From the IMG/VR virus record IMGVR_UViG_3300021406_000052, positions 1 through 20,810 of that record: a DNA stretch of 20,810 bases. One strand, given 5' to 3'. Origin of the DNA: a virus. The position numbers and the translations under genes are program-made. Positions 1,410-20,810 of this stretch are shown here, piece after piece (position 1 is the stretch's first letter; each line of letters begins with the position of its first letter). The notes under the pieces are model-generated. The model worked only from the letters and a program-made list of their open reading frames with translations, did not search any database and was not told the DNA's origin.

Positions 1410-2084
1410 CTAATCGGGGAGATGCCTCACACAATCCTCCGCACCAATCGGCACCTCAGACAGATGCCCACACTGAACACCCGTATCCAAAAACACCTTA
1501 TGCCCCTGCGCCCGAACCTGCCGACAAAACCACAGATCATGCCCTAACTTCTGATCGTTAAGGAACAACGACCGCCCTGAGTCCCAACCCTCCAACACCG
1601 GTCGCGCGATACTTGTGCACCCGAACCCAACCCCGTCCACCTGATGCAAAGACGGCTCCACGGACCACCGGCGGACGAGGCTTCCAGACAAAGCGTGATA
1701 GTTCCCATCAGGCCCATCCCAATACGCAATCGGAGCATGCGGAGGCGTGTGCTTAAAATACGTCCCACACACAACAGCCTGCTCATCACTGTAATGAGCC
1801 ATCCGCGTCAACGCATGCAAAGGCAAAATCATGTCCTGCTCAACAAACACCAACCGGTCCCACCCCGGCACCTTAAACGCCTTCTCCATCAACCGCTCAA
1901 ACGCATCCAAAATATAGACATGATTTATCGAAATCGCATCCAACACATGCGTCTTATCCACCGCCAACCACCTACGAAAAAACTCCGCAGACACCAACTT
2001 GTACAGCGGAAACGCCACAAGCAACTTCCCCGGAACCACCCGTCCAGGAAACCCATCCGACAGCGCGGACTCCGCCAAACTCAC
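1410..2084 (-). CDS. GT-A-like glycosyltransferase, EQDM-type paralogue
   Basis: This encodes 224 aa with a GTG start overlapping the upstream TGA (GTGA). It shares an ordered set of motifs with the plus-strand proteins at 9701 and 12570: an N-terminal strand (KLLVAFPLYKLVSAEFFRRW, about 20-39), the acidic motif FVEQDMILP (about 80-88) in the place where GT-A enzymes carry DxD, a VCGTYFKH strand, VDGVGFGCTSIARPV, and a C-terminal block DLWFC..V..QGHKVFLDTGVQCGHL. GT-A (family 2-like) enzymes transfer sugars from nucleotide-sugars. The likely acceptor, by context only, is a virion protein. It is the only glycosyltransferase copy on the minus strand and the only one downstream of the capsid gene. 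The Gln in EQDM where the paralogues have His is a small difference. The family call is by pattern, so confidence in the exact enzyme class is moderate. Confidence 0.7.
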   Translation of the reverse strand: MSLAESALSDGFPGRVVPGKLLVAFPLYKLVSAEFFRRWLAVDKTHVLDAISINHVYILDAFERLMEKAFKVPGWDRLVFVEQDMILPLHALTRMAHYSDEQAVVCGTYFKHTPPHAPIAYWDGPDGNYHALSGSLVRRWSVEPSLHQVDGVGFGCTSIARPVLEGWDSGRSLFLNDQKLGHDLWFCRQVRAQGHKVFLDTGVQCGHLSEVPIGAEDCVRHLPD

Positions 2085-3846: not shown

Positions 3847-3874
3847 AACTAAGACTGTAGTCACAACGGTAATC

Positions 3875-3959: not shown

Positions 3960-5411
3960 CTAGAAGGTCGGGGCGGTCAACCCGGTGATCGTAACTACGG
4001 ATTGCGGGTAGCGGGCTGCGCTAAACGCGAGGTAGTTGTAGATTTGGAGCAGGACCGTCAAGTTACTTGCCTTCGTCTCTGGTAAGACGCGAGCTCGGAT
4101 GCCCGATTCCCACAGCACGATGTCGCTGGCACGAAGGACATAGATGATGTCTTCGTTACCCGACGGGCTGAACGGACCGTTGGTGATCGAAATGTTCGGG
4201 TCGGTAACAACCGGCAGGCCGAACATCTGGCCCACAACCTGCTGCGAAGCGACGTCCTCCAAAACACCTGCCGTGTTGAAAAGGCCGTTAGCCGACGGCA
4301 AGAACAAAGGGCGGTCAGCCGTGTCAAGCAGCGACTGGAACCAACCCCACCGGCGGGGATGCATAACGATAACCTCAGGAGGCAGGAAGCGCTGCGTGTG
4401 CACCAACTGGATCGCGTTAGCGATAGCCGAGTACACGCCCTGAATGGTGACCGAGTCGGCGGTAACGGTCGAGATACCCGGCGTGTAGTCCACACCAAGA
4501 ACCTGGCCGTTCGAACCGGTACCGTCCAACACCTGGGTGTCGGTAGCTGCAGCGTGAGCTGCAACAAGGTCACGGAACACCACGTCGTCAAACGCGATCG
4601 GAGACTGGTCGATCAGCTGAATCGCCACACCCTGCTGACCACTGATCGTACGCACAGGTGCGTTAATGAACGTGTCCTGCAGGTCCGTGTCCGAAACCGT
4701 GGCGTTGTCAGAAGTCTGAACACCCACCGTAGTACCGGAAAGGATCTTCGGGATGTTGATCGAATCTGTTCCACCAGGCAGCGGCTGCCGTTGGACAAGG
4801 TTCGCAAAAGCGCGACCCGGACGAGCCAGTTCGATATATTGGTTCATTAACCATGCAGGTGGGACAGCGTATCCACCTTGGCCGTCGGTGCGGGAGATGT
4901 CGCGGAACTCCATGTACTCCGGGAGGGTTGCGACGTCCTGCGCGTGACGCAGAAGACGGTCCCGGCACTCGCCGGTGTCGTCCACATTCAGCGACACTTT
5001 AATCATATCTTGCATGTAGCTGCGGCGCGGGTCACCCTTCTGGTAGATGGCCTGCTCGCGGACGTGAGAGATGGTGCCCTCAGCGCGGCGGATGCGTGCG
5101 AGGTTCGAGTTGATCTGACCCGAACGCTCAACCTCGGCGCGGATCTCCTCGATGCGCTCGTCCAGGCCGATCAGCTCGGCCCCGAGAGTCTTCATCTCGT
5201 CCATGTACTTGCGGAACTCGCCGTCTTCGGCGGGGTCCAGCGTCTCGCGTCCCTGCTCACGGGCCAGCAGCAGAACTGCTTCACCCTTTTGCTGGGCGCG
5301 GGCGCGCTCTTCGTGAACCTGGCCGCGGCGCTTGATCAGGGTGGCGAGGAAGTCTTCCATGCCACCTGCAGCGACGAGGCCACGGTTCTCAATAGAACCG
5401 TACTCGCTCAT
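3960..5411 (-). CDS. HK97-fold major capsid protein
   Basis: This encodes 483 aa from ATG 5411, preceded by AAAGGTGAT with 6-8 nt spacing. The open frame extends upstream to 5555, but that extension is low-complexity and has no start signal. Residues about 18-110 form a charged coiled-coil/delta-like region (FLATLIKRRGQVHEERARAQ through IEEIRAEVERSG), as in proheads where it acts as a scaffold and is removed by the protease. The capsid body follows: GGYAVPPAWLMNQYIELARP, an INIPKI strand, GQQGVAIQLIDQSP, PPEVIVMHPRRWGWFQSLLD, QMFGLPVVTDPNI, and a C-terminal AARYPQSVVTITGLTAP. The order and spacing match HK97-like capsid proteins of actinophages. It is unusual that the protease gene lies over 11 kb away instead of directly upstream. 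The gene ends before a strong terminator. Confidence 0.93.
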   Translation of the reverse strand: MSEYGSIENRGLVAAGGMEDFLATLIKRRGQVHEERARAQQKGEAVLLLAREQGRETLDPAEDGEFRKYMDEMKTLGAELIGLDERIEEIRAEVERSGQINSNLARIRRAEGTISHVREQAIYQKGDPRRSYMQDMIKVSLNVDDTGECRDRLLRHAQDVATLPEYMEFRDISRTDGQGGYAVPPAWLMNQYIELARPGRAFANLVQRQPLPGGTDSINIPKILSGTTVGVQTSDNATVSDTDLQDTFINAPVRTISGQQGVAIQLIDQSPIAFDDVVFRDLVAAHAAATDTQVLDGTGSNGQVLGVDYTPGISTVTADSVTIQGVYSAIANAIQLVHTQRFLPPEVIVMHPRRWGWFQSLLDTADRPLFLPSANGLFNTAGVLEDVASQQVVGQMFGLPVVTDPNISITNGPFSPSGNEDIIYVLRASDIVLWESGIRARVLPETKASNLTVLLQIYNYLAFSAARYPQSVVTITGLTAPTF

Positions 5412-5663
5412 TGCGGTATCACCTTTCAGTGAAAGTTTTTTTGGGGGTACTGCTGGCTGGGTGCGTGGGCCACGTGTTGTGGTGACGACTTGGTGCGCGG
5501 GCCTCGGTGAGGTGGCGGCTTGGTTTCCGCGGAGACAGCCTTGTGGCTGTCCCAAGCAGTACCTGCGGGCTAGCGTAAAAAATGTTTACCGTGAAATGGG
5601 TGGAGCGACACGCCGTGTGTGTCGTGCAGTTTGGTGCCGTTAAAGCTGCGGGACCATTTTGTG
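5412..5663. promoter_or_regulatory. Divergent intergenic region ahead of capsid gene
   Basis: This 252-nt gap separates the capsid gene (minus) from a plus-strand gene. It should hold promoters for both, since the capsid gene is cut off from the portal/protease transcript. I see a 7-bp hairpin GACAGCC-TTGT-GGCTGTC (5534-5551), and a GTAAA/TTTAC inverted repeat around 5579-5590 that contains a GTTTACC-type word also found near 12452 and 12496. No clear -35/-10 pair stands out. The hairpin would lie in the capsid leader RNA. Confidence 0.35.
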
Positions 5664-5975
5664 ATGACCACAGGTTTTGAGGGGCTCGCGTATCCGCAGT
5701 TCGTTCCGTCGCCGGGGAAGTATTCTCAGCGGGTTAATGAGCTGCTCGATTATGGGATCGATTGGTCGACGGAGTTGCCGACTGGCGACACGATTGTGGC
5801 GTCGACCTGGGTTGGGGATACCGGTTTGACGTTATCGAATGAGTCGTTCACGACCACGACGACCACAGTCTGGGTATCTGGTGGTACCAAAAATTACCTT
5901 TACCGGGTTCTGAACACGATCACGACCGCCGGAGGTCGCGTAGCCGTTGGGAAATTGTATTTCCGAATTAAGTGA
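5664..5975 (+). CDS. Small beta-sandwich virion-like protein
   Basis: This encodes 103 aa from ATG 5664 (a GTG sits directly before it at 5661, and the frame is open to 5619). After a short N-terminus the protein reads DYGIDWSTELPTGDTIVAST, then W..DTGLTL, TTTTTTVWVSGG and YRVLNTITTAGGR. I recognise this D-W-S...DTI..STW...VW.SGG...NTI.T..GR pattern from small Ig-like/BACON-like proteins encoded near head genes of many phages and prophages, thought to be virion decoration or fibre parts; this is from memory, not a search. It overlaps the convergent HNH gene by 8 nt. There is no convincing Shine-Dalgarno, only a weak GCGGGA. Confidence 0.75.
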   Translation: MTTGFEGLAYPQFVPSPGKYSQRVNELLDYGIDWSTELPTGDTIVASTWVGDTGLTLSNESFTTTTTTVWVSGGTKNYLYRVLNTITTAGGRVAVGKLYFRIK

Positions 5976-6852
5976 TAATCAGTAGTAGTTGTTCTACAGC
6001 ATCTCGATGGTAAGTAACCACATAATTGATGAGGTCCGCTACTCGCGCCCCCTTGGGTTGACTACTAGTCTGCCATAGTTCGAGATTCTCAGGACGGTTG
6101 TCGCTGCGTAACGAGTTCTTGTGGTGAACTTCCTCACCGGCGTTTAGCGGACGGCCTAGCATCTGACTCATTACCAGAACATGCTCCTTGATGGAGCCGT
6201 CTTTACGTGCATTCGGATGGTCGGGGCGATGTAGCACGCGGTATCCATCTTTACTGATATATCCATTGACGCGGGCCTCTGCGGCGCGTATATGCAGACA
6301 CCCGGTGGAACTGCGAAGGCGACTGACACTTTTGAGTAGCTCTACACCGCACGCACAACGGCACCACCACCTTGTCGATCCACTTTTACTATTGTCTCCA
6401 CGTTTAATTACGGTCCAGTCACCGTACGTATGGCCTGTCAGGTCTACAAATCTAGCAGATGGGCGACGGCTCTTGCGGCGGCTACATCCACAGCTCTTGG
6501 TGTTACCGCTCTTGAGGGTCCCCCCGTAGAGGACTTTTTCAGTCCCGCATTCACAGCGACATAGCCACAGGGCCGCCCCGTTGGAATTATTGCCAAATTT
6601 CTCTATTACAGTCCATCTTTCAAAAGTTTTACCTGTTAGATCCTGTAAATTCGAATTTGGATGACCACGGTAACGCCGACATCCACAGCTGGCTGCCTTT
6701 TCAGTGGATAAGTAATTACCGTACATAACTTTCTCGGTGCCGCAATCACAGCGGCAAAGCCACATTGACCCGCCGTGCTTATTATTTTCTGCGCGTTCAA
6801 CGACCACCAACATACCTACAGTTTTCCCTGTCAAATCTCGTAAGGCTGGCAT
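5968..6852 (-). CDS. HNH endonuclease with three zinc/DNA-binding repeats
   Basis: This encodes 294 aa from ATG 6852, with GAAGG 6 nt upstream. Three tandem modules of about 55 aa (residues 5-60, 70-125, 136-187) each read DLTG.T...WTV........S..W.CRC.CG......, the first two ending SCGC and the third TGC. Each supplies a likely zinc site (CRCDCG, CRCECG, CRCACG). The C-terminal domain (about 195-275) is HNH_3-like: YISKDGYRVL, IKEHVLVMSQMLGRPL, EEVHHKNSLRSDNRPENLELW, with His224, His243/244 and Asn residues in the expected places, then a helix. Enzymes of this kind are usually mobile homing endonucleases with repeated sequence-recognition modules. It is unusual that its start codon shares a base with the stop of an XRE regulator (TAATG), so the two are translationally coupled. 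It is inserted head-on between plus-strand virion-like genes. Confidence 0.88.
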   Translation of the reverse strand: MPALRDLTGKTVGMLVVVERAENNKHGGSMWLCRCDCGTEKVMYGNYLSTEKAASCGCRRYRGHPNSNLQDLTGKTFERWTVIEKFGNNSNGAALWLCRCECGTEKVLYGGTLKSGNTKSCGCSRRKSRRPSARFVDLTGHTYGDWTVIKRGDNSKSGSTRWWCRCACGVELLKSVSRLRSSTGCLHIRAAEARVNGYISKDGYRVLHRPDHPNARKDGSIKEHVLVMSQMLGRPLNAGEEVHHKNSLRSDNRPENLELWQTSSQPKGARVADLINYVVTYHRDAVEQLLLIIT

Positions 6853-7424: not shown

Positions 7425-7772
7425 ATGGTCACTTGCACCGCAACTCTTAACACGCTGGCCGCTGATTATGTCGGTTTGGGCAGCTGGATTGGTTTGGCTA
7501 CGGCTTCGCCGGGCACGACGAACGCGCCGACCGGTGAGGCGTCTTCTGGTTCGCCGGCTTATGCCCGTTTGGCGACCACATGGTCTGCCGGTAGCACGGG
7601 TGTGCAGAACGGTACCGCGGTCACCCTGAACGTGTCCGCCGCCACATACACCTATATGTTGGTTGCCAGCTCATCGAGCGGAAACGCCATGTACGACAAT
7701 GTTTCGATCACCTCGGTCGTCATGGGCGCTCAAGGACAGATCGTGGTAACACCGACTTTCACCCAGACCTAA
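7425..7772 (+). CDS. Small virion-associated (tail fibre/decoration-like) protein
   Basis: This encodes 115 aa from ATG 7425, preceded by AGGAG (9-nt spacing); an in-frame TTG at 7419 is less likely. It begins MVTCTATLNTLAADYVGLGS and contains IGLATASPGTTNAPTGEASS followed by GSPAYARLATTWSAG. That 'L.TA.PGTT......GSPAYAR....W' pattern is one I know from small phage structural proteins found next to fibre or head genes. The remainder is Ser/Thr/Ala-rich beta structure ending IVVTPTFTQT. There are no enzymatic motifs. It lies between the XRE regulator and the first glycosyltransferase and is followed by a GC-rich hairpin. A surface protein of this type could be a substrate for the neighbouring glycosyltransferases, which is inference. 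Confidence 0.75.
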   Translation: MVTCTATLNTLAADYVGLGSWIGLATASPGTTNAPTGEASSGSPAYARLATTWSAGSTGVQNGTAVTLNVSAATYTYMLVASSSSGNAMYDNVSITSVVMGAQGQIVVTPTFTQT

Positions 7773-7871: not shown

Positions 7872-7884
7872 TATAATTTGTGGT
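7872..7884 (+). promoter_or_regulatory. Consensus -10 box of a leaderless promoter
   Basis: A perfect TATAAT (7872-7877) lies 7 nt before GTG 7885, exactly where a transcript would start at the G of the start codon. There is no Shine-Dalgarno. A weak -35 (TTTCGC, 7849-7854) is 17 nt upstream. Leaderless GTG messages are common in actinobacteria. Confidence 0.6.
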
Positions 7885-8595
7885 GTGGCTGCCGCAAATA
7901 TCTTCATAGCGACTCCGATGTACGGCGGGACATGTTACGGCAGTTACGAGGCGTCGATGCTGCGGACGATCCCAGCGTTTATGAACGCTGGCGTTCCTTT
8001 GCGGGTGGGCTGGACGGTGAACGAGTCTCTGGTCACCCGCGCCCGGGACAGTCTGGCCCGGGATTTCATGCAGACGGGCTGCACTCATTTGATGTTCATC
8101 GACGCCGATATCGGATTTCGGCCCGAGGACATCCTGAAGATGGCGGAATCCGATAAGGACATCATCGCCGGCCTGTATCCGCGTAAGGAGATCGATTGGG
8201 GCATGGTGGCCGCGGCTGTTCGCCGTGGCGTCCCGGACGGTGAGTTGCACCTTCATACTGGGGCGTTGGTGGTGAACACGTGGGCTGGTGAGCAGCCGAT
8301 TGAGGCGTTGCATCCTGGTGATGATCCGGTTGAGGTGGAATCGGTGGGTACCGGGTTCATGTTGATTAAGCGCGAGGTATTGGAGGTGGTGGCCGGCGGT
8401 GTGGCTACCTATCTGAATGGGCGAGACGCGGCTTTGTATCATCAGTTCTTCACTACCAGCATCAACAGTGATGGGATCCTGTTGTCTGAGGATTTCTATT
8501 TTTGTGAGTTGGCGCGTAGGTATGGGTTTAAGGTGTGGGTCGCGCCGTGGGCGCAGTTGACGCACACCGGCGCTTACCGGTTCGGCAGAGGATGA
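7885..8595 (+). CDS. GT-A-like glycosyltransferase, DxD type
   Basis: This encodes 236 aa. I chose GTG 7885 over an in-frame GTG at 7855 because the product then aligns with the paralogue at 8929 from residue 1 (IFIATPMYGG versus VFIATPMYGG) and because of the TATAAT placement. The motifs are a nucleotide-binding first strand, ESLVTRARDSLARDFMQTGC, the metal-binding HLMFIDADIGF (Asp73, Asp75), DKDIIAGLYPRKEIDW, ESVGTGFMLIKREV (acceptor-side loop), SEDFYFCELARRYGFKVWVA, and LTHTGAYRF. This is the layout of GT-A, family-2-like enzymes acting in the cytoplasm on nucleotide-sugars. The ATGA overlap with the next gene couples it to a zinc-ribbon protein. The acceptor is unknown; capsid, fibre or decoration proteins are the contextual candidates. 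Confidence 0.85.
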   Translation: MAAANIFIATPMYGGTCYGSYEASMLRTIPAFMNAGVPLRVGWTVNESLVTRARDSLARDFMQTGCTHLMFIDADIGFRPEDILKMAESDKDIIAGLYPRKEIDWGMVAAAVRRGVPDGELHLHTGALVVNTWAGEQPIEALHPGDDPVEVESVGTGFMLIKREVLEVVAGGVATYLNGRDAALYHQFFTTSINSDGILLSEDFYFCELARRYGFKVWVAPWAQLTHTGAYRFGRG

Positions 8596-8918
8596 CGATG
8601 GATCCGCGGGAAGCGGAGTGGCGGCAGTACGAGGCCGAACAGCTAGCTAGGGGCCGCTGTCCGCATAGCGGAGAGGTACTGCATCGCGAGGGTGAAGCTG
8701 GGCCGCACGCCGCGTCCTGCGACATGTGCGATTGCTTCGGATACGACCCTGAGCTGGTGAAAGTGTGGCCGCGCCCGCTGCGTGTGGTGCGCTGGAAGGT
8801 GACTAGAAAAAGGTGCCCCGAGTGCGGTCTTCCGTTCGCGTCCGACAAGTGGTCGCGAATCTGCCATCAGTGCTTCGACAAGACGCTCACCCCGTTGCGG
8901 CGCATATCCTGGCTATAG
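8592..8918 (+). CDS. Zinc-ribbon hypothetical protein
   Basis: This encodes 108 aa from ATG 8592, overlapping the glycosyltransferase stop by 4 nt (ATGA). It has three Cys groups: CPHSGE near residue 23, CDMCDCFGYD near 43, and RKRCPECGLPFASDKWSRIC..C towards the C-terminus. The last group (C-x2-C...C-x2-C) is a typical zinc ribbon. The first 30 residues form a charged helix (DPREAEWRQYEAEQLARG). No catalytic residues are recognised. It may be an adaptor or DNA/RNA-binding protein; coupling suggests it works with the glycosyltransferase, but small zinc proteins are also common passengers in phages. The -10-like box of the next gene overlaps its stop codon. Confidence 0.7.
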   Translation: MTMDPREAEWRQYEAEQLARGRCPHSGEVLHREGEAGPHAASCDMCDCFGYDPELVKVWPRPLRVVRWKVTRKRCPECGLPFASDKWSRICHQCFDKTLTPLRRISWL

Positions 8919-8928
8919 CCTCATACCC

Positions 8929-9612
8929 GTGACTAATCCTTCCGTGTTCATCGCCACACCCATGTACGGCGGAATGTGTCACGGTAGCTACGCATTTTCG
9001 CTGACGCGAGTTATCTCGGTTTTGCAGAGCGCACGGATTTCAGTGCGTCTTGGCCACCTAGAGAATGCGTCCCTGATTACTTTGGCGCGGGACTTCTTGG
9101 CTGATGAATTCCTTACCACCGATTGCACGCATCTGATGTTCATTGACAGCGACATTGGCTTCCGGGCCGAAGATATCGTGTCGATGGTCGCGGCAGACAA
9201 GGACATCATTTTGGGGTCGTATGCCCGTAAGGGGATCGATTGGGAGCGGGTAGCCGCCGCGGCGAAGCAGGGCGTACTGGCGCAGGAATTACATCGATAC
9301 GCCGGTGTCTCCGTGGTCACGACATTAGATGGAGCTGGGATCACCGGAGTGGCACCGGTAGAAGTTGCTGGCGGCGGCATGGGCTTCACGCTCATCAAAC
9401 GCGAGGTGTTCCATGGCCTGGCTAGCAAGGTGCGGGATTACGACGAACTGGGCCGATATCGGATGAAGCACTTTTTCGCGTCTATTGTCGAGGGCGGTCG
9501 CATGCTGGGCGAAGATGAGTACTTCTACAAGCTGGCCCGCGATAACGGGTACCGGGTATGGGCCGCCCCGTGGGTGGAGCTAACCCACACCGGGTCCTAC
9601 AAATTCACCTAG
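8929..9612 (+). CDS. GT-A-like glycosyltransferase, DxD type, paralogue
   Basis: This encodes 227 aa from GTG 8929. There is no Shine-Dalgarno; TAGCCT (8916-8921) lies 7 nt before the start, which fits a leaderless message. It aligns with the 7885 product along its length: VFIATPMYGG, SLITLARDFLADEF, HLMFIDSDIGF with Asp73 and Asp75, DKDIILGSYARKGIDWERVA, GGGMGFTLIKREVF, GEDEYFYKLARDNGYRVWAA, and LTHTGSYKF. The two differ most in the middle (about 120-150) and in the acceptor-side loop, so they may use different acceptors or sugars. Local gene duplication or separate acquisition of related genes are both possible. The enzyme class is well supported by motif; the substrate is unknown. Confidence 0.85.
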   Translation: MTNPSVFIATPMYGGMCHGSYAFSLTRVISVLQSARISVRLGHLENASLITLARDFLADEFLTTDCTHLMFIDSDIGFRAEDIVSMVAADKDIILGSYARKGIDWERVAAAAKQGVLAQELHRYAGVSVVTTLDGAGITGVAPVEVAGGGMGFTLIKREVFHGLASKVRDYDELGRYRMKHFFASIVEGGRMLGEDEYFYKLARDNGYRVWAAPWVELTHTGSYKFT

Positions 9613-9647
9613 ACCGCCGCGTCGCGCAAAAAGTTGCGCTGCAGTCG

Positions 9648-9694
9648 GTTCCGGCGCGCCGTAAACGGCAAACCGGGAGGCGGGACTATAGCGT
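9648..9694 (+). promoter_or_regulatory. Conserved upstream element plus -10-like box
   Basis: The segment 9648-9675 matches 12517-12544 at 26 of 28 positions, and both begin exactly 53 nt before a GTG start of a glycosyltransferase gene. It contains GCCGTAAACGGC, a 4-bp-arm palindrome around TAAA. TATAGC (9687) or TAGCGT (9689-9694) then lies 8 or 6 nt before the GTG. I read it as a promoter or activator/repressor site. Confidence 0.55.
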
Positions 9695-9700
9695 TCTTGG

Positions 9701-10360
9701 GTGACCAACCGCCTAGTCGTCGCGTGGCCCTTCTACCGAACGCTCAGTGTCGACTGGTTCCTGACCTGGAGCCAAATGGGGAAAGGGCCGCTGGTTGCGC
9801 AGCTCGCCACGAACGGCGCGGCCCTCGCTTCTGCGATGCAGCAACTGGTCGATAGAGCGTTCTCGCAAGTCGGCGACCAGTGGGACTACCTGGTCTTCTA
9901 TGAGCACGACATGATACCGCCGCTGGATGCGTTTGACCGCGTGGCTGAGTACAACCCGGAGGAACACCACATCGTCGGTGCTATGTACTTCGCTCGACAG
10001 CCACCTCATTCTCCAACTGTGTCCATGAAACTCGACCGGGGCGCGAATCAGGCACCGGACTACGTATATCCAACTCCGGAATTAACCAAGCAAATGGTCG
10101 AGGCCCCGGCGCTCTACGAAGTGGAATCCGTTGGTACCGGTTTCACCGCCATCCACAGGACGGTGTTCGAGAAATGGGATAAGAACATCCGAATGTGGGA
10201 GGCCCAAGAGCCCATCCTCGTCCACGACATGTGGTTCTGCCTGAAAGCAAAAGAACAAGGCTTCAAAGTGTGGGTCGATTCAGGCATCGTATGCGGACAT
10301 ATCACGGAGCGGGCCGTCAGCTACGACGATTACCGACGCTACCAGCAGTGGGCCGGCTAG
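9701..10360 (+). CDS. GT-A-like glycosyltransferase, EHDM type
   Basis: This encodes 219 aa from GTG 9701, with no Shine-Dalgarno. The pattern shared with the 12570 and 1410-2084 products is RLVVAWPFYRTLSVDWFLTW, DYLVFYEHDMIPPLDAFDRV (EHD in the DxD position), HHIVGAMYFARQPPHSP, QMVEAPALYEVESVGTGFTA, then VHDMWFCLKAKEQGFKVWVD and CGHI. The order is that of GT-A glycosyltransferases, with the last His and the GTGF loop as likely metal/acceptor residues. It belongs to a second subfamily, distinct from the DxD pair upstream. It abuts the FkbM methyltransferase directly (its TAG is followed immediately by ATG), suggesting a glycosylate-then-methylate pair, which is inference. Confidence 0.8.
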   Translation: MTNRLVVAWPFYRTLSVDWFLTWSQMGKGPLVAQLATNGAALASAMQQLVDRAFSQVGDQWDYLVFYEHDMIPPLDAFDRVAEYNPEEHHIVGAMYFARQPPHSPTVSMKLDRGANQAPDYVYPTPELTKQMVEAPALYEVESVGTGFTAIHRTVFEKWDKNIRMWEAQEPILVHDMWFCLKAKEQGFKVWVDSGIVCGHITERAVSYDDYRRYQQWAG

Positions 10361-11197
10361 ATGCACACGTTCCTCAAGGATTGCCGCCATGGACGCTTTG
10401 TCTTGGTGCGCGGCGACATGGTCAGCAGTTACGTTGACCTGTACGGAGAGTGGAGCGAACTAGAGGTCAAGCTGTTTAGTCGGTTATTGAAGCCCGATAG
10501 TGTGGTCATCGAGGTCGGATCTAATCTCGGCATGCACAGTGTTCCGTTGGGCAACATCGTGCCGGATGGCCGAGTCGTCTGCTTCGAGCCGCAGCGCCCA
10601 ATATTCAACATCTTGTGCGGAAATATCGCGCTCAATAATCTGCTGAACGTCCATGCCCACCGTTTGGCTGTCGGGGAACGCAACGAGACCGTCGCTATAG
10701 CGTCTACCGATTACGAAGCGCCGTGGAATTACAGCGCCTTCTCCCTTTCTGTCGGTTTCAACCGTGATGGCCAATTCTTCGGCGGGGTTGAATCGGAGCG
10801 CGTCGAGGTCGTCACCCTCGACCAGTTCCCCGATACCGCGGATCTGGAACGCTTGGATCTGCTCAAGCTAGACGCCGAGGGAATGGAACTCCCGGTGCTT
10901 CGCGGTGCCAGGACTCTTATTGAGCGGACGAGGCCGATCCTATTCGTTGAAAACGACAAAGCCGGCGGCGATGATCTGATCGGCTATATTCGTGGCCTCG
11001 GATACTACTGCTACTGGTACCACACCGAACGCTTCTCGTGGACCAACTACAACCGCGCTCCCTGGAAAGTTGATGGGACGGACGCCAACATGGTGTGCTT
11101 CCCTAAGGGGGAGGCCCTTCCCGTGAAGGGCCTCCCCCGGGCGGAATCTTTCGGCCAGCTTGAGCGCGGCGAGGTGCCGTTGGTCGAGGTGATCTGA
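10361..11197 (+). CDS. FkbM-family SAM-dependent methyltransferase
   Basis: This encodes 278 aa from ATG 10361, with no gap after the upstream stop codon. Residues 48-60 (VVIEVGSNLGMHS) are the SAM-binding motif I. RVVCFEPQRPIFNILCGNIA follows with the acidic motif II residue, and LDLLKLDAEGMELPVLRGA is the hallmark of FkbM/Methyltransf_21 proteins. The C-terminal third (GLGYYCYWYHTERFSWTNYN) is aromatic. Members of this family commonly O-methylate sugars or polyketide hydroxyls; here the paired glycosyltransferase makes glycan methylation the natural guess. A 13-bp-stem hairpin lies inside the last 30 codons. The gene converges with a minus-strand gene 2 nt away. Confidence 0.9.
   Translation: MHTFLKDCRHGRFVLVRGDMVSSYVDLYGEWSELEVKLFSRLLKPDSVVIEVGSNLGMHSVPLGNIVPDGRVVCFEPQRPIFNILCGNIALNNLLNVHAHRLAVGERNETVAIASTDYEAPWNYSAFSLSVGFNRDGQFFGGVESERVEVVTLDQFPDTADLERLDLLKLDAEGMELPVLRGARTLIERTRPILFVENDKAGGDDLIGYIRGLGYYCYWYHTERFSWTNYNRAPWKVDGTDANMVCFPKGEALPVKGLPRAESFGQLERGEVPLVEVI
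11107..11138 (-). terminator. 13-bp hairpin inside the methyltransferase gene, likely terminator of the convergent gene
   Basis: GGGGGAGGCCCTT (11107-11119) and AAGGGCCTCCCCC (11126-11138) form a perfect stem with a 6-nt loop. It lies about 60 nt past the stop of the minus-strand gene ending at 11200, a normal terminator distance, while being embedded in codons of the methyltransferase. No T-run follows on either strand. Confidence 0.55.
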
Positions 11198-11199
11198 CG

Positions 11200-12408
11200 C
11201 TAGGAAGCGTAGGTTAACTCGTCTCCCGGACCTGTCTCCGATGTGCCGACCGGGGTTGTGATGGTGACATCCACGGTTCCGGTCTGATCGGATGGCACTA
11301 CAAAACCCGCAACCTCGTCGCTGTTGACACTCCAGTCGGCCTCGGAAAGTAAAAGGTCCCCAAGGTGGAGCGCAGTGGCACCGCCGAGGTGCGTTCCGTT
11401 GATCTGCATGCTATCCCCGGGCGCACCGGTAGAGGTTCCCTCGTAAGTAGGATTGGTGTAGTTAACGACGCTGGTGATAGCGGGTGTTGGCGGCACTTCG
11501 AAGGTGAATTGGTCGGCAGTGTTGGCGGAACTGCCTGCCGGGGTGATCACGATTACGTCAACCGTTAAATCAGCCGGTACGCCGCCGGGTGGAAGGTTGG
11601 CGATCATGAACTTTATCCAGTTCGTTGGTGTATACGCGGTAATCGAAGTATCGGAGTTTACGGTGAACTCCCACGCTGGTGTAGTGCCAAAGTTGACTGC
11701 TGTGGCTCCGGTGAAGTTGTAGCCGGTTATCTCAACGGTGTTGATGCCAGCGCCTTCGTCGGTTTCTGTGGGCGACACCGCGGTCACCACTGGCGTTGTC
11801 GGAGTAGCAGGTACCGAGACGAGCGCGGCGGTGATGCCGCCCCAGTTGTCGGTGGCGCTCAGGGTTGCCCCGAACGTAGTGGTAGTGTCAGCGTCGCTGA
11901 TGGCGACGCCGGTTGACGGGTCTGAGTAGCTGGTCACGCAACGGTTTGTGCCCCCAGTTGGTGACGAAAGTGTACCTGAACCTATATTGCCGAAGCCCTG
12001 GATAACCACCTGTCCCGGAAACGTGACATCCACTGTTTGCGACAAACTCTCACCGCTGCCGTAGGTAGTGGTGGCCGGTGTACCAACCAAGTCCACACCG
12101 GTGTAGGAAACCGAGTTACCGGCCCAGTAGCCACCCCAACTGGGGGAGATTTCAACGGTTTCCTCCCCGCCGGCCACATCGGGCAGGTAGAAAAGGAACA
12201 GGGTTCCAGCCCCACCATCAAGGTTGACCGAACCCAACTCGATCATCGGCACACCGCCGTACGTGGCCGAACCTGTGTATGTGTAAAGGCCGTATTGAAT
12301 AACGAAGTAGGCAAACACGTCGGCTCCGGCGGTCGCGGTGTGCGACCAGGAAAACGAAAATCCAAACCCTGAACCACCTACACCTGTAGCATCGTAAGCG
12401 ATAGACAT
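11200..12408 (-). CDS. Surface/fibre-like protein with IPT/TIG repeats
   Basis: This encodes 402 aa from ATG 12408, with AGGAG and a 5-6 nt spacer; the frame is open to 12540, but that extension lacks signals. Residues 1-205 form a Gly/Ser/Thr-rich beta module beginning MSIAYDATGVGGSGFGFSFS and ending near GGITAALVSVP. It resembles the first ~210 residues of the 955-aa protein (MSIAWDGTSG..., ending AIAIDLAPSG). Two IPT/TIG (Ig-like) units follow: about 215-310 (VTAVSPTETDEGAGINTVEI...GYNFTGATAVNFG...DVIVITPAGSS) and about 315-402 (ITSVVNYTNP...INGTHLGGATALHLG...VDVTITTPVGTS). IPT domains typically occur in binding or spacer regions of surface proteins. There is no signal peptide, consistent with a virion protein. 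It is the only minus-strand structural-type gene inside the plus-strand cargo. Confidence 0.8.
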   Translation of the reverse strand: MSIAYDATGVGGSGFGFSFSWSHTATAGADVFAYFVIQYGLYTYTGSATYGGVPMIELGSVNLDGGAGTLFLFYLPDVAGGEETVEISPSWGGYWAGNSVSYTGVDLVGTPATTTYGSGESLSQTVDVTFPGQVVIQGFGNIGSGTLSSPTGGTNRCVTSYSDPSTGVAISDADTTTTFGATLSATDNWGGITAALVSVPATPTTPVVTAVSPTETDEGAGINTVEITGYNFTGATAVNFGTTPAWEFTVNSDTSITAYTPTNWIKFMIANLPPGGVPADLTVDVIVITPAGSSANTADQFTFEVPPTPAITSVVNYTNPTYEGTSTGAPGDSMQINGTHLGGATALHLGDLLLSEADWSVNSDEVAGFVVPSDQTGTVDVTITTPVGTSETGPGDELTYAS

Positions 12409-12569
12409 ACAATCTCCTATTGTCATTGTTAGACAACAAGATTCGCACACGTTTACCATGCAACAAGCGCAGGCGGTGAAAGGCGGGCGTGTCGGTAAAC
12501 AGGGCGTGTACGGTGCGTTCCGGCGCGGCGTAAACGGCAAACCTGGCGCGGGGGGATACGCTTCCGTTT
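12409..12569. promoter_or_regulatory. Divergent promoter region with repeated GTAAAC words
   Basis: This 161-nt gap separates the IPT protein (minus) from a glycosyltransferase (plus). It holds GTTTACC (12451), GGTAAAC (12494) and CGTAAACGGC (12530), three related words in both orientations. At 12517-12544 is the second copy of the 28-nt element found at 9648. TACGCT (12557-12562) lies 7 nt before GTG 12570. On the minus strand no clean -10/-35 is seen, but a Shine-Dalgarno (AGGAG) precedes the gene. Confidence 0.5.
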
Positions 12570-13304
12570 GTGCAGAAGTTGGTGGTGGCGTGGCCGCTGT
12601 ACCGTACAGTACCCGTCCAGTGGCTATTCCAGTGGACTCAGATGGAGCGGGAGCACGGCGCTAATGTGGTGGCCGTGGTGGGCACGGAGGCTATCTATTT
12701 GCCGATGGCGATGCACACGCTGATCAACGAGGCGTTCAAGAAGTGCCCCGATTTTGATCGGCTTGTCATTATGGAGCATGACATGATTCCGCCGGTTGAT
12801 GCGTTTGAGCGTATCGGCCAGTACGGCGATGAGCATGACATTGTTGGGACGATGTATTTTAAGCATGAGTGGCCGCATCATGTGATGGCGTGGATGCAGG
12901 TTAAGCCGCCTTATTATTCGCCGTTGACGGCTGCGGTGACTAGGCAGATGGTGGAGACGCCGGCGTTGTATGAGGTGGATGCGGTGGCGATGGGTTTCAC
13001 TGCGATCCGGCGGCAGGTTTTTGAGGGTTGGGATCGGAATGTTCCGATGTGGGATCCGGTTGCGCCGCTGGTTGGGCATGATTTGCATTTCTGCAATGAG
13101 GCCAAGAAGCAAGGTTTCAAGGTTTGGGTTGACAGCGGGATCGGGTGTGGGCATTTGACGACGATGCCGATTGGTTATGGGCATTCGCAGCAGGCGTTGG
13201 AGGCTGATCCGCCGCCGCGGTGGAAAGCTGGGGATGGTACTGAGTGTTATGACGAGCGTGGCGATGGTGGGGAATATGATGATCCTCCTAACAGGGAGGT
13301 GTGA
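12570..13304 (+). CDS. GT-A-like glycosyltransferase, EHDM type, paralogue
   Basis: This encodes 244 aa from GTG 12570. The motifs match the 9701 product in order: KLVVAWPLYRTVPVQWLFQW, HTLINEAFKKCPDFDRLVIM, EHDMIPPVDAFERIGQYG, DIVGTMYFKHEWPHH, RQMVETPALYEVDAVAMGFT, GHDLHFCNEAKKQGFKVWVD, and GIGCGHLTTMP. It carries about 25 extra C-terminal residues rich in Asp/Glu/Gly/Pro (DGTECYDERGDGGEYDDP). The AMGF loop replaces GTGF of its paralogue, a change in the presumed acceptor/donor loop. There is no Shine-Dalgarno, and a TACGCT box lies 7 nt upstream. It overlaps the next gene by one base (TGATG). Confidence 0.8.
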   Translation: MQKLVVAWPLYRTVPVQWLFQWTQMEREHGANVVAVVGTEAIYLPMAMHTLINEAFKKCPDFDRLVIMEHDMIPPVDAFERIGQYGDEHDIVGTMYFKHEWPHHVMAWMQVKPPYYSPLTAAVTRQMVETPALYEVDAVAMGFTAIRRQVFEGWDRNVPMWDPVAPLVGHDLHFCNEAKKQGFKVWVDSGIGCGHLTTMPIGYGHSQQALEADPPPRWKAGDGTECYDERGDGGEYDDPPNREV

Positions 13305-13639
13305 TGGCGAATCATGGGGAGTTGACGCCGCATGTTTGGCCGCCGTATGTGGGTTTGTCCACCATTGAGGGGGAGCCGATTGATGACCCTAATTATGGTC
13401 GGGGTTTGATTTCTTGGCGGACCGAGCCGGACGGCAGCATTCTGGGTTCCGCACGCATTTTGGCCCCTAAGGGTATTTACACCCATGTTGTGTTTTATTC
13501 GGGGCCGCGTAAGGAGCATCCGCCGATGCCTGGGCATGATCCTCAGCAGGTGCCTCATCCGGTGGTGTTTGATAGGCCGGGGACGATTGAGATAAATCCG
13601 ATCAGGAATGGTGAGTACCTGCCTCGGCAGGGTTGGTGA
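13304..13639 (+). CDS. Hypothetical protein coupled to glycosyltransferase
   Basis: This encodes 111 aa from ATG 13304, with a good GGGAGGTG 4 nt upstream; the ATG shares a base with the preceding TGA. The sequence is Pro/Gly/His rich and beta-like: HVWPPYVGLSTIEGEPIDDP, GLISWRTEPDGSILGSARIL, GIYTHVVFYSGPRKEHPPMP, VPHPVVFDRPGTIEINPIRN. There is no membrane segment, signal peptide or recognised catalytic motif. It looks like a compact single-domain structural or accessory protein. Coupling to the glycosyltransferase suggests it may be a virion protein or accessory to modification, but nothing fixes that. A terminator-like hairpin follows. Confidence 0.65.
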   Translation: MANHGELTPHVWPPYVGLSTIEGEPIDDPNYGRGLISWRTEPDGSILGSARILAPKGIYTHVVFYSGPRKEHPPMPGHDPQQVPHPVVFDRPGTIEINPIRNGEYLPRQGW

Positions 13640-17160: not shown

Positions 17161-19479
17161 TTAACGCTCCTTAGCTTGACGGTGACGGCGGATTGCGTCG
17201 TTCAGTTCAGCTTCACGCTGCGCGGCCTTCAAACGCTCCGCAGCTTTGTCCGACTCCTGCGCCGCGGTGCGGGCACGCCGGTCGCTTTCCAAAGCTTCGC
17301 GGGCCAAACGCTCAGCAGGCGTAGTGACGTGCAGCTGCGGATCGTGATCCAGCAGACCACCGTAACCGACCGGCGCGGAACCAGCCGCCCGCAGATGCTT
17401 CATGTAATCGGTCACCGTCCCGGTGCCAAGGTCCCCAACCTCGGAACGGATCTCAGCCATCCTCTTCTGAATGTCCGACGGCCCAGCAGGCTTAGGTGCC
17501 TTACCGGCCAGAATGTAAAGCTGCTTACGCGCCACAGCCAACGTTTGACGCACCTCCTGGTTACCTTCGGCCAGCTTGTAGCAGTGGACGATGGTCCGCT
17601 CCAGGGCTTCAACCATCCCCATGTCGAGGCCGAGTTCCACATGCTCACCGTCGTCGGCGTCGTCGTTGCTCTTGTGCAGCGACCCGCCTTCAATGTTGGT
17701 TGGCTCCCAACCGCCGGTGTGGAAGTGGGTGCCCGGGCCGCCTAACGTTGGGGTGTCATGCGGGTCGCATGACGCTTCCATCGCGCGGACCGCAGCGTCC
17801 AACTCTTGGGCCGGGTCGCCCGGCTCGAGGCTGCCCTCAGACCAGTCCCATTCGTGGTCACCCGACGTCACCACCGGTCCGGTGCCCACCGACGGCGGCG
17901 TTCCGGGACTCACAGAAGAACCGCCACCAAGCGCCGGGGTGTTCTCCATGATGTTGTCCGGCACACGGCCTGAGTCGCCGGCGTGGGTGCCGACGTTCGG
18001 GCGGTCACCGGGCACACGACCGACCTGGCCACCCAACGTGTACGGGGTGTGGTGCGGGTCACCGCCCCCGCCCTCGCCGTTAGCGAAGCCGTCCTCGATG
18101 GCGATCTTCGATCCGCCCGGGTAAGGTCCGAATTCCAACGAACCGTCATGTGGATCCATTGACAGCTTCTCCTCAGTGTCGAAGGATTGGTCGTGCGGGT
18201 CCTCTTCGGGTGAGGGCTGCGCGAACGATGGGTTGTCGGCGGTGAATTTGTTTCCGCCGCCCTGAATGTTGTCGGGAATAGGTCCGGCAGCGACGAGTCC
18301 CATCGGGCCGACTTCATACTTGTTGTCGTGCGGATCTTCGGTCTGCACGTTGCCCGGGTCCCAATCGCTGTCCCCGTTGTTGCCTTTCAGGTCGCCCCTG
18401 GCGGCGGGCAGGGCCGGCGCTTGCGTCGGCAGCGGCACCCGCGAACCGTCCATCATCACCGCAACCAGCGTGATATTCCCGTCAGCGCGGTACACCTGCT
18501 CAATGTGCGACAAACCTGTCTTGCCTTTACTCTTATCGGCGTCATCGCTGGTCTCCACACCGAACTTCTTCAACGCAGCCTTGATACGGCCCTTGATAGC
18601 CGACACCTGAGTGGACGTGTAACCCTTCTGGTTTTTCGGCATATTGATGTACGACCAGGCCGCTTTGGCGCGTTCCTTATTGTTGATCGGGTAACGCTTC
18701 TTGCCCTCTTTGTAGCCAGGGTCAGCGTAAGTGACGTCACCGTAGTCGCCGCTGTCGTCGCGCACAGACACAGTCTTAGCCGGCGCACCCAACGAACCCG
18801 GACCAGGAGGAACCTCATAGCCGGTGAGGGACATGAGGATCGCAGCTGCCCGCTTAACCTGCTTACCGTCCAACTTACCGACCTGATTACGCAACTCCAC
18901 CAACTCCTTAGTGGACAACTGCGACAACATACCGACAGCGTCAGCCAAAACCACCTTAGTGGTGGGGTTCATGCCGTAATTCACAACGCTCACGTCCCCC
19001 TTCTCCAAACTGAGCGCACTGATCGTGCGGTTACTATAGCTGGTGTTCCAAGCTTGCTTCGTCACCCGGAAAGCGAACGACATTTCGTCCATGTCGCCGC
19101 GCCGCATCTTAGGCACAAGCGCCTGAACATCCGGATCGGTAGGGTCCAAAGAAGCCCAAACCCGCAACCCATGAGAGTCGCGGGTCAATTTCAAAGTGCC
19201 GCTCTTAGTACGCGCAAGAGGCGTACCGGTGTGGTTAATCAACAATTGAACATCAGGCTTCTCGGCCAGCGTCTCATCAAACGCGCGCTGATCAAGCTGC
19301 TCAACCCAACCGCCAGCATCCGGTCCGCCGTGACAATCGTAAGGCTGATACGTTGCGGCGTACCCCTGGAGTATGATTTCACCAGAGGACTTGTCTTCGC
19401 GGAACTCGAGACGCTCAGCACCCGCACGGCGCTCAACGGTGCCGAGCAGGTTCTCCCGCTCACTGCGAAACTCAGTCAT
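17161..19479 (-). CDS. HK97-type prohead protease with long acidic DPHD-rich extension
   Basis: This encodes 772 aa from ATG 19479, with GAGGAG 8 nt upstream; an in-frame GTG at 19488 overlaps the portal stop but lies inside that Shine-Dalgarno. Residues 15-185 are the S78-type serine protease that matures the capsid: INHTGTPLARTKSGTL with catalytic His83, and GDMDEMSFAFRVT with Ser134. Residues 250-307 (DPGYKEGKKRYPINNKERAK ... AALKKFG) look like a small domain (DUF6582-like, from memory) seen after such proteases. Residues 375-600 are disordered, Gly/Pro/Asp rich, with five D-P-H-[DH] motifs (382, 427, 442, 474, 572) and repeated P-x-N-I. The tail (720-772) is a charged coiled coil that could serve as scaffold. 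Typical family members have about 200-300 aa, so this is far longer than usual. No separate scaffold gene is visible. Confidence 0.88.
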   Translation of the reverse strand: MTEFRSERENLLGTVERRAGAERLEFREDKSSGEIILQGYAATYQPYDCHGGPDAGGWVEQLDQRAFDETLAEKPDVQLLINHTGTPLARTKSGTLKLTRDSHGLRVWASLDPTDPDVQALVPKMRRGDMDEMSFAFRVTKQAWNTSYSNRTISALSLEKGDVSVVNYGMNPTTKVVLADAVGMLSQLSTKELVELRNQVGKLDGKQVKRAAAILMSLTGYEVPPGPGSLGAPAKTVSVRDDSGDYGDVTYADPGYKEGKKRYPINNKERAKAAWSYINMPKNQKGYTSTQVSAIKGRIKAALKKFGVETSDDADKSKGKTGLSHIEQVYRADGNITLVAVMMDGSRVPLPTQAPALPAARGDLKGNNGDSDWDPGNVQTEDPHDNKYEVGPMGLVAAGPIPDNIQGGGNKFTADNPSFAQPSPEEDPHDQSFDTEEKLSMDPHDGSLEFGPYPGGSKIAIEDGFANGEGGGGDPHHTPYTLGGQVGRVPGDRPNVGTHAGDSGRVPDNIMENTPALGGGSSVSPGTPPSVGTGPVVTSGDHEWDWSEGSLEPGDPAQELDAAVRAMEASCDPHDTPTLGGPGTHFHTGGWEPTNIEGGSLHKSNDDADDGEHVELGLDMGMVEALERTIVHCYKLAEGNQEVRQTLAVARKQLYILAGKAPKPAGPSDIQKRMAEIRSEVGDLGTGTVTDYMKHLRAAGSAPVGYGGLLDHDPQLHVTTPAERLAREALESDRRARTAAQESDKAAERLKAAQREAELNDAIRRHRQAKER

Positions 19480-19484
19480 AAAAG

Positions 19485-20810
19485 TCACTCCTCGTCGCTA
19501 AGCATGGCAGGAGATTTGCCGTGGTTGTGGTAGGCGACGCGCATTTCGCGCTCATATGTCGCTATCGAGTCAGAACCGTCGTCCGGTCTAATAAGCGCAC
19601 CTTCGGACGTGTATTCATATCCCGGAGGAGCGCCGTCCCGGCCACGCCCTCCGCTGTGCTCCCCGCCGCCCACCGGAGGCATAGGCAACGTGCCACTACC
19701 AGGAGATTTACTCGGCGACTTCGGCCTGGAACCGCCACCGTTACCATTCCCGCCAGCAGAACCCCCACCAGCACCACCAAGAGCGGCGATATCCTGAACA
19801 CCCAAAGACGTGTAGTTCGGCGGCACCAACAAATTGTCACCATTAGGCACCGGATCCATTTCCTCAGACGCACGCGCCTCATTGGGCGTCATAAACGTCC
19901 CCTGGATAGCGGTCTGCAAAGCGTTATAACGTCCCGTCATGTCACCCCGCAGCAAGCTGTTATAGTCGAACCGCACAAACTGGCCCCGCGGCAACAAACC
20001 AGAAATAACCGACTCGATACACGAAGTCCACGGCCTAAACGTATACGTCACAGCACCCAAAGTTATCTGCTCGACACCAGTACCCCACGCGGTTGTGTTG
20101 TGGGAAATAATGCCATTCGTGATATGGGTATGGGTTTGCTCGATCTCTATCCCCACACTCTGGCCGGGTCCCATGTGCTCTACGCTCTTGACGCGGTCGT
20201 ACTCAAATGTGACTTCCCGTTTCGGCGATGCACCTTCATGCGTGGTTGCAAGGTTTGCCAGCTTGTTCCGTTTTTCGGGATGGGTTATATCCAGTAGCTG
20301 CGCTAGCTTGGCCAATTCTCTGCGGCCTTTGATACGCAACTGCCATCCGTCGCGGCAGACGGCCATGCGACCACCTGGCACTGAGCGATACCGGGCCTTG
20401 GTCGCCAAATAGATCGATGAGTTGATTCCCAGCAACGCAAGGAGGTGCTGGCACCCCTCTAGCAGCTCTCGACTGGCTGAGCCGAAGTGAGCATGCGGCT
20501 GTTTGGCCGTGGTGGAGATGCAGCCGTCTGCGTCGAAGTAGCCGGACAAGAAGCCTTTCCACGCTTCCGGGCCGCCGGTCATCACCATGTCCGGCACGAA
20601 CTTGTCATGGGCATGGGTGCCGACGAGTTCCGACTGTTGGAGGATGCCGCCGATGACGGAGGTGTAGCCCGCGTTCAGAAGGTCAAAGGTCCGGTTTCCG
20701 CGATAAACCAGACGGCCTCCGAGCGACTCCACTACCTCGCTCATGCGGGCGATGACATCTTCATTGGTGTTGGCCCAGCGGCTCTGGTGCTTACTTGTGA
20801 GCCTGATGTG
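19485..20810 (-). CDS. Portal protein, 3' part, interrupted by an intein (partial)
   Basis: The frame is open to the right edge, so the start is outside. The C-terminal host segment (20096-19485) is recognisably HK97-like portal: TTAWGTGVEQITLGAVTYTF, RPWTSCIESVISGLLPRGQF, DYNSLLRGDMTGRYNALQTA, IQGTFMTPNEARASEEMDPV, DNLLVPPNY, then a Gly/Ser/Pro-rich tail of about 100 aa. The portal forms the ring through which DNA enters the head. It precedes the protease gene, with the stop 5 nt from the protease ATG. The long low-complexity tail (GGAGGGSAGGNGNGGGS...) is unusual for this family. The N-terminal half and the upstream terminase are outside the window. Confidence 0.9.
   Translation of the reverse strand, partial: HIRLTSKHQSRWANTNEDVIARMSEVVESLGGRLVYRGNRTFDLLNAGYTSVIGGILQQSELVGTHAHDKFVPDMVMTGGPEAWKGFLSGYFDADGCISTTAKQPHAHFGSASRELLEGCQHLLALLGINSSIYLATKARYRSVPGGRMAVCRDGWQLRIKGRRELAKLAQLLDITHPEKRNKLANLATTHEGASPKREVTFEYDRVKSVEHMGPGQSVGIEIEQTHTHITNGIISHNTTAWGTGVEQITLGAVTYTFRPWTSCIESVISGLLPRGQFVRFDYNSLLRGDMTGRYNALQTAIQGTFMTPNEARASEEMDPVPNGDNLLVPPNYTSLGVQDIAALGGAGGGSAGGNGNGGGSRPKSPSKSPGSGTLPMPPVGGGEHSGGRGRDGAPPGYEYTSEGALIRPDDGSDSIATYEREMRVAYHNHGKSPAMLSDEE
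20097..20810 (-). other. Intein with LAGLIDADG endonuclease in portal gene (C-terminal part)
   Basis: At least 238 codons of intein precede the portal C-terminal part. The visible features are a LAGLIDADG-type motif FLSGYFDADG (residues about 65-74 counted from the Met at 20744), an endonuclease/DNA-binding stretch through LANLATTHEG, and a C-terminal splicing block IEIEQTHTHITNGIISHN with the penultimate His, the terminal Asn (codon 20097-20099) and a following Thr as first residue of the C-extein. This is the canonical end of a self-splicing intein. The N-terminal Cys/Ser and the first endonuclease motif would be beyond the window edge. I do not see an inactivating change in the visible part. 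Confidence 0.93.

What the first reader, a model, noticed from the sequence alone, without database searches (positions are those of the whole stretch)
7885..11197. Multi-glycosyltransferase plus FkbM methyltransferase cassette embedded in head genes
Four GT-A-like genes (7885, 8929, 9701, 12570) lie with an FkbM methyltransferase directly behind the third, in the segment separating the protease and capsid genes, and a fifth relative sits downstream of the capsid (1410-2084). Two subfamilies are visible: DxD-type (IDADIG/IDSDIG) and E[HQ]DM-type. Established: some mycobacteriophages glycosylate virion proteins with phage-encoded glycosyltransferases. Inference: this phage builds a stepwise, methylated glycan on its virion. 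Several transferases with divergent middle loops suggest different sugars or acceptors.
Basis: partly seen in the sequence, partly recalled or inferred. Interest (0 to 1): 0.85.

Follow-up and report, generated by a model that had tools for sequence, protein, structure and literature searches.

The report
Phage genes for coating virions with sugars
This phage fragment, probably from a virus of mycobacteria or their relatives, carries five related sugar-attaching enzymes and a methylating enzyme among its particle genes, most likely to decorate its own particles, a strategy already known from other mycobacterial phages but built here from a different set of parts.

Summary
Confirmed: five related GT-A glycosyltransferase (GT) genes (7885, 8929, 9701, 12570 on +; 1410-2084 on -) and an FkbM methyltransferase directly behind the third. 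Models of two GTs match the viral GT-A enzyme STIV A197 (Z 20.2, 17.6). The fragment is related to mycobacteriophages; the closest characterised GT lies behind the capsid gene of cluster J phages (54%), whose GT + methyltransferase cassette was described in 2013.

Corrected: the + strand GTs sit between two genes that are neighbours at the end of the tail block in four reference phages, and this module lies inverted between protease and capsid genes. Related contigs show the same inversion beside the capsid gene. More distant relatives fill the protease-capsid gap with unrelated GT, methyltransferase or sulfotransferase genes, which argues for a conserved role at the virion.

Four of five GT genes have a -10 box 6-7 nt before a start codon without ribosome-binding site: predicted leaderless promoters.

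Acceptor unproven: the capsid C-terminus is equally conserved with and without GTs, and the GTs show no family-level similarity to the proven Che8 enzymes. Best reading: a new member of the actinophage virion-glycosylation loci.

The parts
7885..8595 (+). glycosyltransferase 1 (DXD type, phrog_1574); TATAAT 7872-7877 ends 7 nt before the GTG start
8592..8918 (+). small zinc-ribbon-like protein; ATG overlaps the stop of glycosyltransferase 1 (ATGA); role unknown
8929..9612 (+). glycosyltransferase 2 (DXD type, phrog_1574; 52% to glycosyltransferase 1)
9648..9684 (+). 37-nt upstream element shared (86%) with 12517-12553, at the same distance from the start codon
9701..10360 (+). glycosyltransferase 3 (E-x-D type, phrog_12406)
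10361..11197 (+). FkbM-family methyltransferase; ATG abuts the stop of glycosyltransferase 3
12517..12553 (+). second copy of the 37-nt upstream element
12570..13304 (+). glycosyltransferase 4 (E-x-D type, phrog_12406; 54% to Optimus gp12)
13304..13639 (+). phrog_37805 protein, a gene at the end of the tail block in reference phages; start overlaps the stop of glycosyltransferase 4
1410..2084 (-). glycosyltransferase 5 (E-x-D type, phrog_12406), downstream of the capsid gene
7425..7772 (+). Ser/Thr-rich (30%) phrog_240 protein ('head protein' in some records, end of the tail block by synteny); candidate acceptor
5619..5975 (+). Gp77-like fibre-tail adaptor (PF23148); candidate acceptor
11200..12540 (-). 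minor-tail-like protein with TIG-like region (phrog_553); interrupts the cassette on the other strand
3960..5411 (-). major capsid protein (ORF open from 5555; ATG 5411 has an upstream GAAAGG); candidate acceptor
17161..19488 (-). head maturation protease (Peptidase_S78), other edge of the interval

Best explanation
The genes make a virion-glycosylation locus of an actinobacteriophage. Soluble, metal-dependent GT-A glycosyltransferases take host nucleotide sugars and attach them to one or more virion proteins (capsid, or the tail and fibre proteins encoded alongside). Further transferases extend or branch the sugar, and the FkbM enzyme O-methylates a sugar hydroxyl with S-adenosylmethionine. 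Shown here: the gene families, the predicted GT-A fold, conserved metal-site and catalytic-site positions, synteny with virion genes in relatives, and predicted separate promoters. Inferred: that the acceptor is a virion protein, the order of steps, and the methyl cap.
For: (1) GT-A fold predicted for both subfamilies: STIV A197 Z 20.2, rmsd 2.3 over 173 residues, and Z 17.6, rmsd 2.5 over 163; then LH3, COLGALT1, Mnn9 and GlfT2, several of which glycosylate proteins. (2) The invariant Asp aligns with position 151 of A197, the residue whose D151E change delays STIV replication; STIV's major capsid protein is glycosylated (PMC10551542). (3) No transmembrane-like stretch in the GTs (highest 19-residue mean 1.42), fitting a cytosolic acceptor. 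(4) Relatives carry GT genes close to the capsid gene: GT_1410-like in L021/L022/L035, GT_7885-like and GT_12570-like in L024; unrelated GT2-type, methyltransferase and sulfotransferase genes in the protease-capsid gap of L026, L027/L028, L029, L030/L031. (5) Cluster J phages have GT-kinase-methyltransferase-GT-GT-GalT directly behind the capsid gene (PMC3706429). (6) Cluster O carries an O-methyltransferase plus GTs between portal and protease (PMC4351075); capsid and tail-tube glycosylation is reported for mycobacteriophages including Che8, Corndog and Myrna (Freeman 2023, as cited in PMC12363180, and PMC12619734). (7) FkbM abuts GT_9701.
Against: No biochemical evidence. No sequence similarity to the proven Che8 GTs beyond the DXD region (hhalign probability 1.7-9%). 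The capsid C-terminus (TGLTAPTF) is the same in phages with GTs and in Bipper, which has none behind its capsid gene, so no acceptor site stands out. FkbM was not found in the 15 related records, though several are short fragments. Four GT genes lie on the strand opposite to the head genes with predicted promoters of their own, so late co-expression is not shown. phrog_1574 GTs also occur away from structural genes in another phage.
Confidence: 0.72

Rival explanations
1. The enzymes modify host cell-envelope glycans, for example to block superinfection or hide a receptor, as serotype-converting phages do.
For: Fold neighbours include envelope-glycan enzymes such as GlfT2 of Nocardia and TarP. 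FkbM enzymes also act on surface and small-molecule glycans (general knowledge).
Against: The GTs have no membrane segment, unlike Gtr-type enzymes, and no flippase family was hit among the ORFs scanned. Placement follows virion genes in many relatives, and published cassettes of this kind modify virions.
Confidence: 0.13
2. The enzymes glycosylate modified bases in phage DNA to protect it from restriction.
For: phrog_1574 relatives occur in T4-like and other phages outside structural genes, and phage DNA glycosyltransferases are known (Pyle 2024, cited in PMC12619734).
Against: No thymidylate synthase / dCMP hydroxymethylase family gene (PF00303) in the complete Optimus genome or the tested relatives, with working controls. 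Tet_JBP also absent, but no control rang. The genes sit beside the capsid gene.
Confidence: 0.06
3. The cassette is a set of exchangeable accessory genes parked in a recombination hot spot between protease and capsid, with no single shared role.
For: The interval varies greatly (2.1-11.8 kb). It also contains HNH and HTH genes in the window and a chalcone-synthase-like gene in L035.
Against: GT genes recur there or close by, often with methyltransferase or sulfotransferase partners, in unrelated forms, which chance cargo would not predict. GT_1410 is under purifying selection.
Confidence: 0.09

Closest known systems
Cluster J mycobacteriophage cassette (Optimus gp12-gp17, gp21; Thibault, BAKA), PMC3706429
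   Same: phrog_12406-type GT directly behind the capsid gene (54% to GT_12570, 41% to GT_1410); several GTs plus a methyltransferase within virion genes
   Different: Here most GTs are on the opposite strand, between protease and capsid, inside a tail-gene module. The methyltransferase is FkbM-type, no kinase or zinc protease was found in the fragment, and phrog_1574 GTs are added.
Cluster O cassette (Corndog gp35-gp38), PMC4351075; Freeman 2023
   Same: O-methyltransferase plus GTs inserted among head genes; glycosylated virion proteins reported
   Different: Located between portal and protease. Corndog's own sequences were not held here, so direct comparison was not possible.
Che8 gp108-gp110 (cluster F); gp110 named as essential for capsid glycosylation in PMC12363180
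   Same: Phage-encoded GTs with a DXD-like region
   Different: No family-level sequence match to the window GTs; located near the right end of the genome, away from structural genes.
STIV A197 (PDB 2c0n)
   Same: Minimal viral GT-A enzyme; best or joint best structural match; Asp at position 151 shared
   Different: Archaeal virus, single gene, 16-21% identity in the structural alignments, sugar and acceptor unknown
FkbM-family methyltransferases (TIGR01444, PF05050)
   Same: Clear match above curated cut-offs; related methyltransferase genes in Rhodococcus phage Grayson and Sinorhizobium phage phiM12
   Different: In those phages the gene is not beside GT or capsid genes

Membership tests
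GT-A fold glycosyltransferases | GT-A fold | tested here: met
   Predicted models, pLDDT 86.9 and 82.7; best matches STIV A197, LH3, Mnn9, COLGALT1. Modelled for GT_12570 and GT_7885 only; the other three by sequence homology.
GT-A fold glycosyltransferases | DXD-type metal motif and conserved catalytic-site Asp | tested here: met
   DAD/DSD in two, E-x-D in three; invariant Asp and near-invariant His across 19 sequences; Asp aligned to A197 position 151
GT-A fold glycosyltransferases | transferase activity with a nucleotide sugar | not testable with these tools
   needs enzyme assay
phrog_12406 glycosyltransferases (cluster J type) | profile match over most of the protein | tested here: met
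   GT_9701, GT_12570, GT_1410
FkbM family methyltransferases | score above curated cut-off | tested here: met
   TIGR01444 101.2 vs 37.7 bits; PF05050 61.1 vs 22.7
Proven virion glycosyltransferases of phage Che8 | GTs of the same sequence family as Che8 gp108-gp110 | tested here: not met
   hhalign probability 1.7-9%, only the DXD region aligned. So the window GTs are not filed in the Che8 enzyme families; the locus is only said to work alike.
Actinophage virion-glycosylation loci (clusters J and O type) | several GTs plus a methyltransferase within virion structural genes | tested here: met
Actinophage virion-glycosylation loci (clusters J and O type) | recognisable acceptor tail on the capsid C-terminus | tested here: inconclusive
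   C-terminus TGLTAPTF conserved with and without GTs
Actinophage virion-glycosylation loci (clusters J and O type) | glycan present on virion proteins | not testable with these tools
   needs glycoproteomics
Serotype-conversion (Gtr) glycosyltransferases | membrane-anchored GT | tested here: not met
   no transmembrane-like segment in any of the five GTs by a simple hydropathy scan
Phage DNA glycosylation systems | pyrimidine hydroxymethylase of the PF00303 family in the same genome | tested here: inconclusive
   absent in complete Optimus and six related records with working controls, but the window's own genome is incomplete

The most novel reading that the evidence does not exclude
The protease-capsid interval of this phage clade is an exchange site for whole glycan-modification pathways: unrelated GT, methyltransferase and sulfotransferase sets replace each other there and change the sugar coat of the virion. 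In this subclade the exchange also involves the fibre/tail-end module, so tail-tip or fibre proteins rather than the capsid may be the acceptor.
Probability: 0.3. Interest if true: 0.65.

Novelty: new member of a known kind. Interest (0 to 1): 0.42.

Why it matters
Phage virion glycosylation has been demonstrated in only a few phages. This locus and its relatives suggest that, in uncultivated relatives of mycobacteriophages, a GT and methyltransferase set beside the capsid gene is common and is repeatedly rebuilt from unrelated enzymes. That makes the question of acceptor and benefit testable in cultivated cluster J phages that carry the same GT family.

Tried and rejected
Assembly chimera as the reason for the inverted module: rejected for the capsid side, since L021, L022, L024 and L033 also have the gp77-like gene (L024 also the phrog_240-like gene and a GT) on the opposite strand upstream of the capsid gene; L021, L022 and L033 are very alike, so this is about two independent cases. 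The protease-side junction is not covered by a relative. Acceptor hunting in the capsid C-terminus: no difference between phages with and without GTs. Prophage relatives in GTDB genomes by capsid query: none. FkbM against the PDB by sequence: no match. Rfam: nothing. Two motif classes as two chemistries: rejected, since E-x-D sits in the DXD column. The 320-aa L024 protein (5343-6305) could not be assigned. Freeman 2023 was not held in the library, so its results are taken from papers that cite it. The Corndog record was not held under the accessions tried.

Full report
What is there. The window is a 20,810-base virus record with no larger genome held. Portal (with a LAGLIDADG intein), S78 protease and capsid genes lie on the minus strand. 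The capsid is closest to mycobacteriophages prophiGD43A-5 and Bipper (51-53%) and then to phages such as Lucky2013, Courthouse and MiaZeal. Five GT genes and an FkbM methyltransferase are present as reported. GT_7885 and GT_8929 belong to phrog_1574; GT_9701, GT_12570 and GT_1410 belong to phrog_12406, named glycosyltransferase in PHROGs. The tree separates the two groups with full support.

Fold and active site. AlphaFold models of GT_12570 (pLDDT 86.9) and GT_7885 (82.7) both match GT-A enzymes. The best or joint best is STIV A197 (Z 20.2, rmsd 2.3 over 173 residues; Z 17.6, rmsd 2.5 over 163), followed by LH3, COLGALT1, Mnn9, a mimivirus enzyme (R699) and GlfT2. A profile search against PDB sequences finds A197 at E 5e-12. 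The invariant Asp of the family aligns to position 151 of A197. A review reports that the A197 D151E change delays STIV replication and that STIV's capsid protein is glycosylated (PMC10551542). The E[HQ]DM motif lies in the DXD column and keeps the second Asp. It is therefore a variant of the metal site and not a separate chemistry.

Surroundings. The phrase 'embedded in head genes' needs correction. The + strand genes next to the GTs are tail-type: a phrog_240 protein (7425-7772), a Gp77-like fibre-tail adaptor (5619-5975) and a phrog_37805 protein (13304-13639). In prophiGD43A-5, JustASigh and prophiFSQJ01-1 the phrog_240-like and phrog_37805-like genes are direct neighbours at the end of the minor tail block, shortly before lysin A. 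The matches in NM241 are also adjacent (12603-12923 and 12974-13270), and Douge has the first gene in the same place. In the window, and in the 180 kb contig of L016/L017, GT genes lie between the two. So the cassette appears inserted into the end of a tail module. That module lies inverted between protease and capsid, 11,750 bp, where Optimus, Bipper and prophiGD43A-5 have 175-190 bp. It is not an assembly artefact on the capsid side: L021/L022/L033 and L024 show the same inverted gp77-like gene beside the capsid gene, and L024 also the phrog_240-like gene and a GT_7885-like gene.

Relatives. Capsid genes 60-92% identical were found in 15 loci. GT_1410-like genes follow the capsid gene in L021/L022 (75%) and L035 (55%), and L024 has a GT_12570-like gene there. 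More distant relatives lack both GT families but have other enzymes in the protease-capsid gap: in L026 a Methyltransf_23 protein, a TylF-like methyltransferase, a GT2 and a GT2/galactosyltransferase-like protein; in L027 and L029 methyltransferase-GT2 fusions; in L030 a sulfotransferase-GT2 fusion plus a second GT2-like protein. Some of the GT2 scores are below Pfam's cut-off. In the 127 kb contig G011 both PF00535 matches lie in this gap, and in the 101 kb contig G008 one of two does. Unrelated enzymes of the same two or three kinds at the same place are best explained by selection for modifying something made there, most simply a virion protein. FkbM itself was found in none of the 15 related records.

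Known cassettes. Cluster J phages carry eight to ten genes between capsid and connector genes with several GTs and a methyltransferase (PMC3706429; Optimus map). Optimus gp12 is 54% identical to GT_12570. Cluster O carries an O-methyltransferase, two GTs and a GlcNAc-transferase between portal and protease, and methyl and glycan modification of the capsid was proposed in 2015 (PMC4351075). Freeman and colleagues (2023) reported glycans on the C-termini of capsid and tail-tube proteins (as cited in PMC12619734), with glycosylated proteins in Che8, Corndog and Myrna (PMC12363180). Direct comparison with Che8 gp108-gp110 gave no family-level match. So this locus works like those systems, but its GTs are not members of the proven Che8 families.

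Expression. Four of five GT genes have a TANNNT hexamer ending 6-7 nt before the GTG start and no ribosome-binding site (TATAAT at 7872-7877; TAGCCT, TAGCGT, TACGCT for the others). Only 1.2% of all RTG triplets in the window have this, giving a nominal P of 9e-8 for four of five; the motif was looked for after seeing TATAAT, so this is somewhat optimistic. The L021 GT gene has the same feature, and so does the window's gene starting at 1376. Optimus GT genes do not. Capsid and phrog_240 genes have ribosome-binding-site-like sequences instead. This predicts leaderless mRNAs from dedicated promoters; leaderless genes are common in mycobacteria (general knowledge). A 37-nt element, 86% identical, lies at the same distance before GT_9701 and GT_12570. 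FkbM abuts GT_9701 and the zinc-ribbon gene overlaps GT_7885, so each pair is probably translated together.

Which acceptor. Nothing decides it. The capsid C-terminus is equally conserved in phages with and without GTs. By neighbourhood and Ser/Thr content the phrog_240 protein (30%), the TIG-type tail protein (24%) and the gp77-like protein (23%) are candidates, which is inference. Envelope modification is less likely because the GTs lack membrane segments. DNA modification is less likely because the complete Optimus genome and the tested relatives lack PF00303 enzymes.

Verdict. Observation confirmed, interpretation partly supported, and a new member of a known kind. The recurring replacement of unrelated GT and methyltransferase sets at one place beside the capsid gene is the most interesting part.

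Noticed in passing
window 19485-20810, - strand: Portal gene interrupted by an intein with LAGLIDADG domain (PF14528, E 1.7e-16); the C-terminal extein begins at about 20096 after 'HN'.
   Followed up: partly
window 7872-7877, 8916-8921, 9689-9694, 12557-12562: TANNNT hexamers 6-7 nt before the GTG starts of four GT genes, without ribosome-binding sites; predicted leaderless promoters. The gene at 711-1376 (-) has the same (TATACT, 7 nt).
   Followed up: partly
window 11105-11140 (approximate): Perfect hairpin GGGGGAGGCCCTT...AAGGGCCTCCCCC inside the 3' end of FkbM, where it meets the tail-like gene tail to tail.
   Followed up: no
window 13733-16600, + strand: GDSL esterase domain inside a 955-aa protein with 54-nt (18-residue) repeats; a repeat protein matching only the repeat part lies near the GTs in L016/L017.
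   Followed up: partly
L035 7824-8906, - strand: Chalcone/stilbene-synthase-like (type III polyketide synthase) gene in the protease-capsid interval of a relative.
   Followed up: no
L030 7475-8827: Sulfotransferase fused to a GT2-like domain beside the capsid gene, suggesting sulfated sugars in that relative.
   Followed up: no
L068 6953-8447 (phage ctz7E20): GT_7885-like gene (47%) followed by a methyltransferase gene in a non-structural region, so a GT-methyltransferase pairing also occurs away from virion genes.
   Followed up: no
window 3160-3891 and 5968-6852, - strand: Endonuclease VII-like and HNH genes on both sides of the capsid gene, as expected of free-standing homing endonucleases; they could drive exchange at this site.
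   Followed up: no
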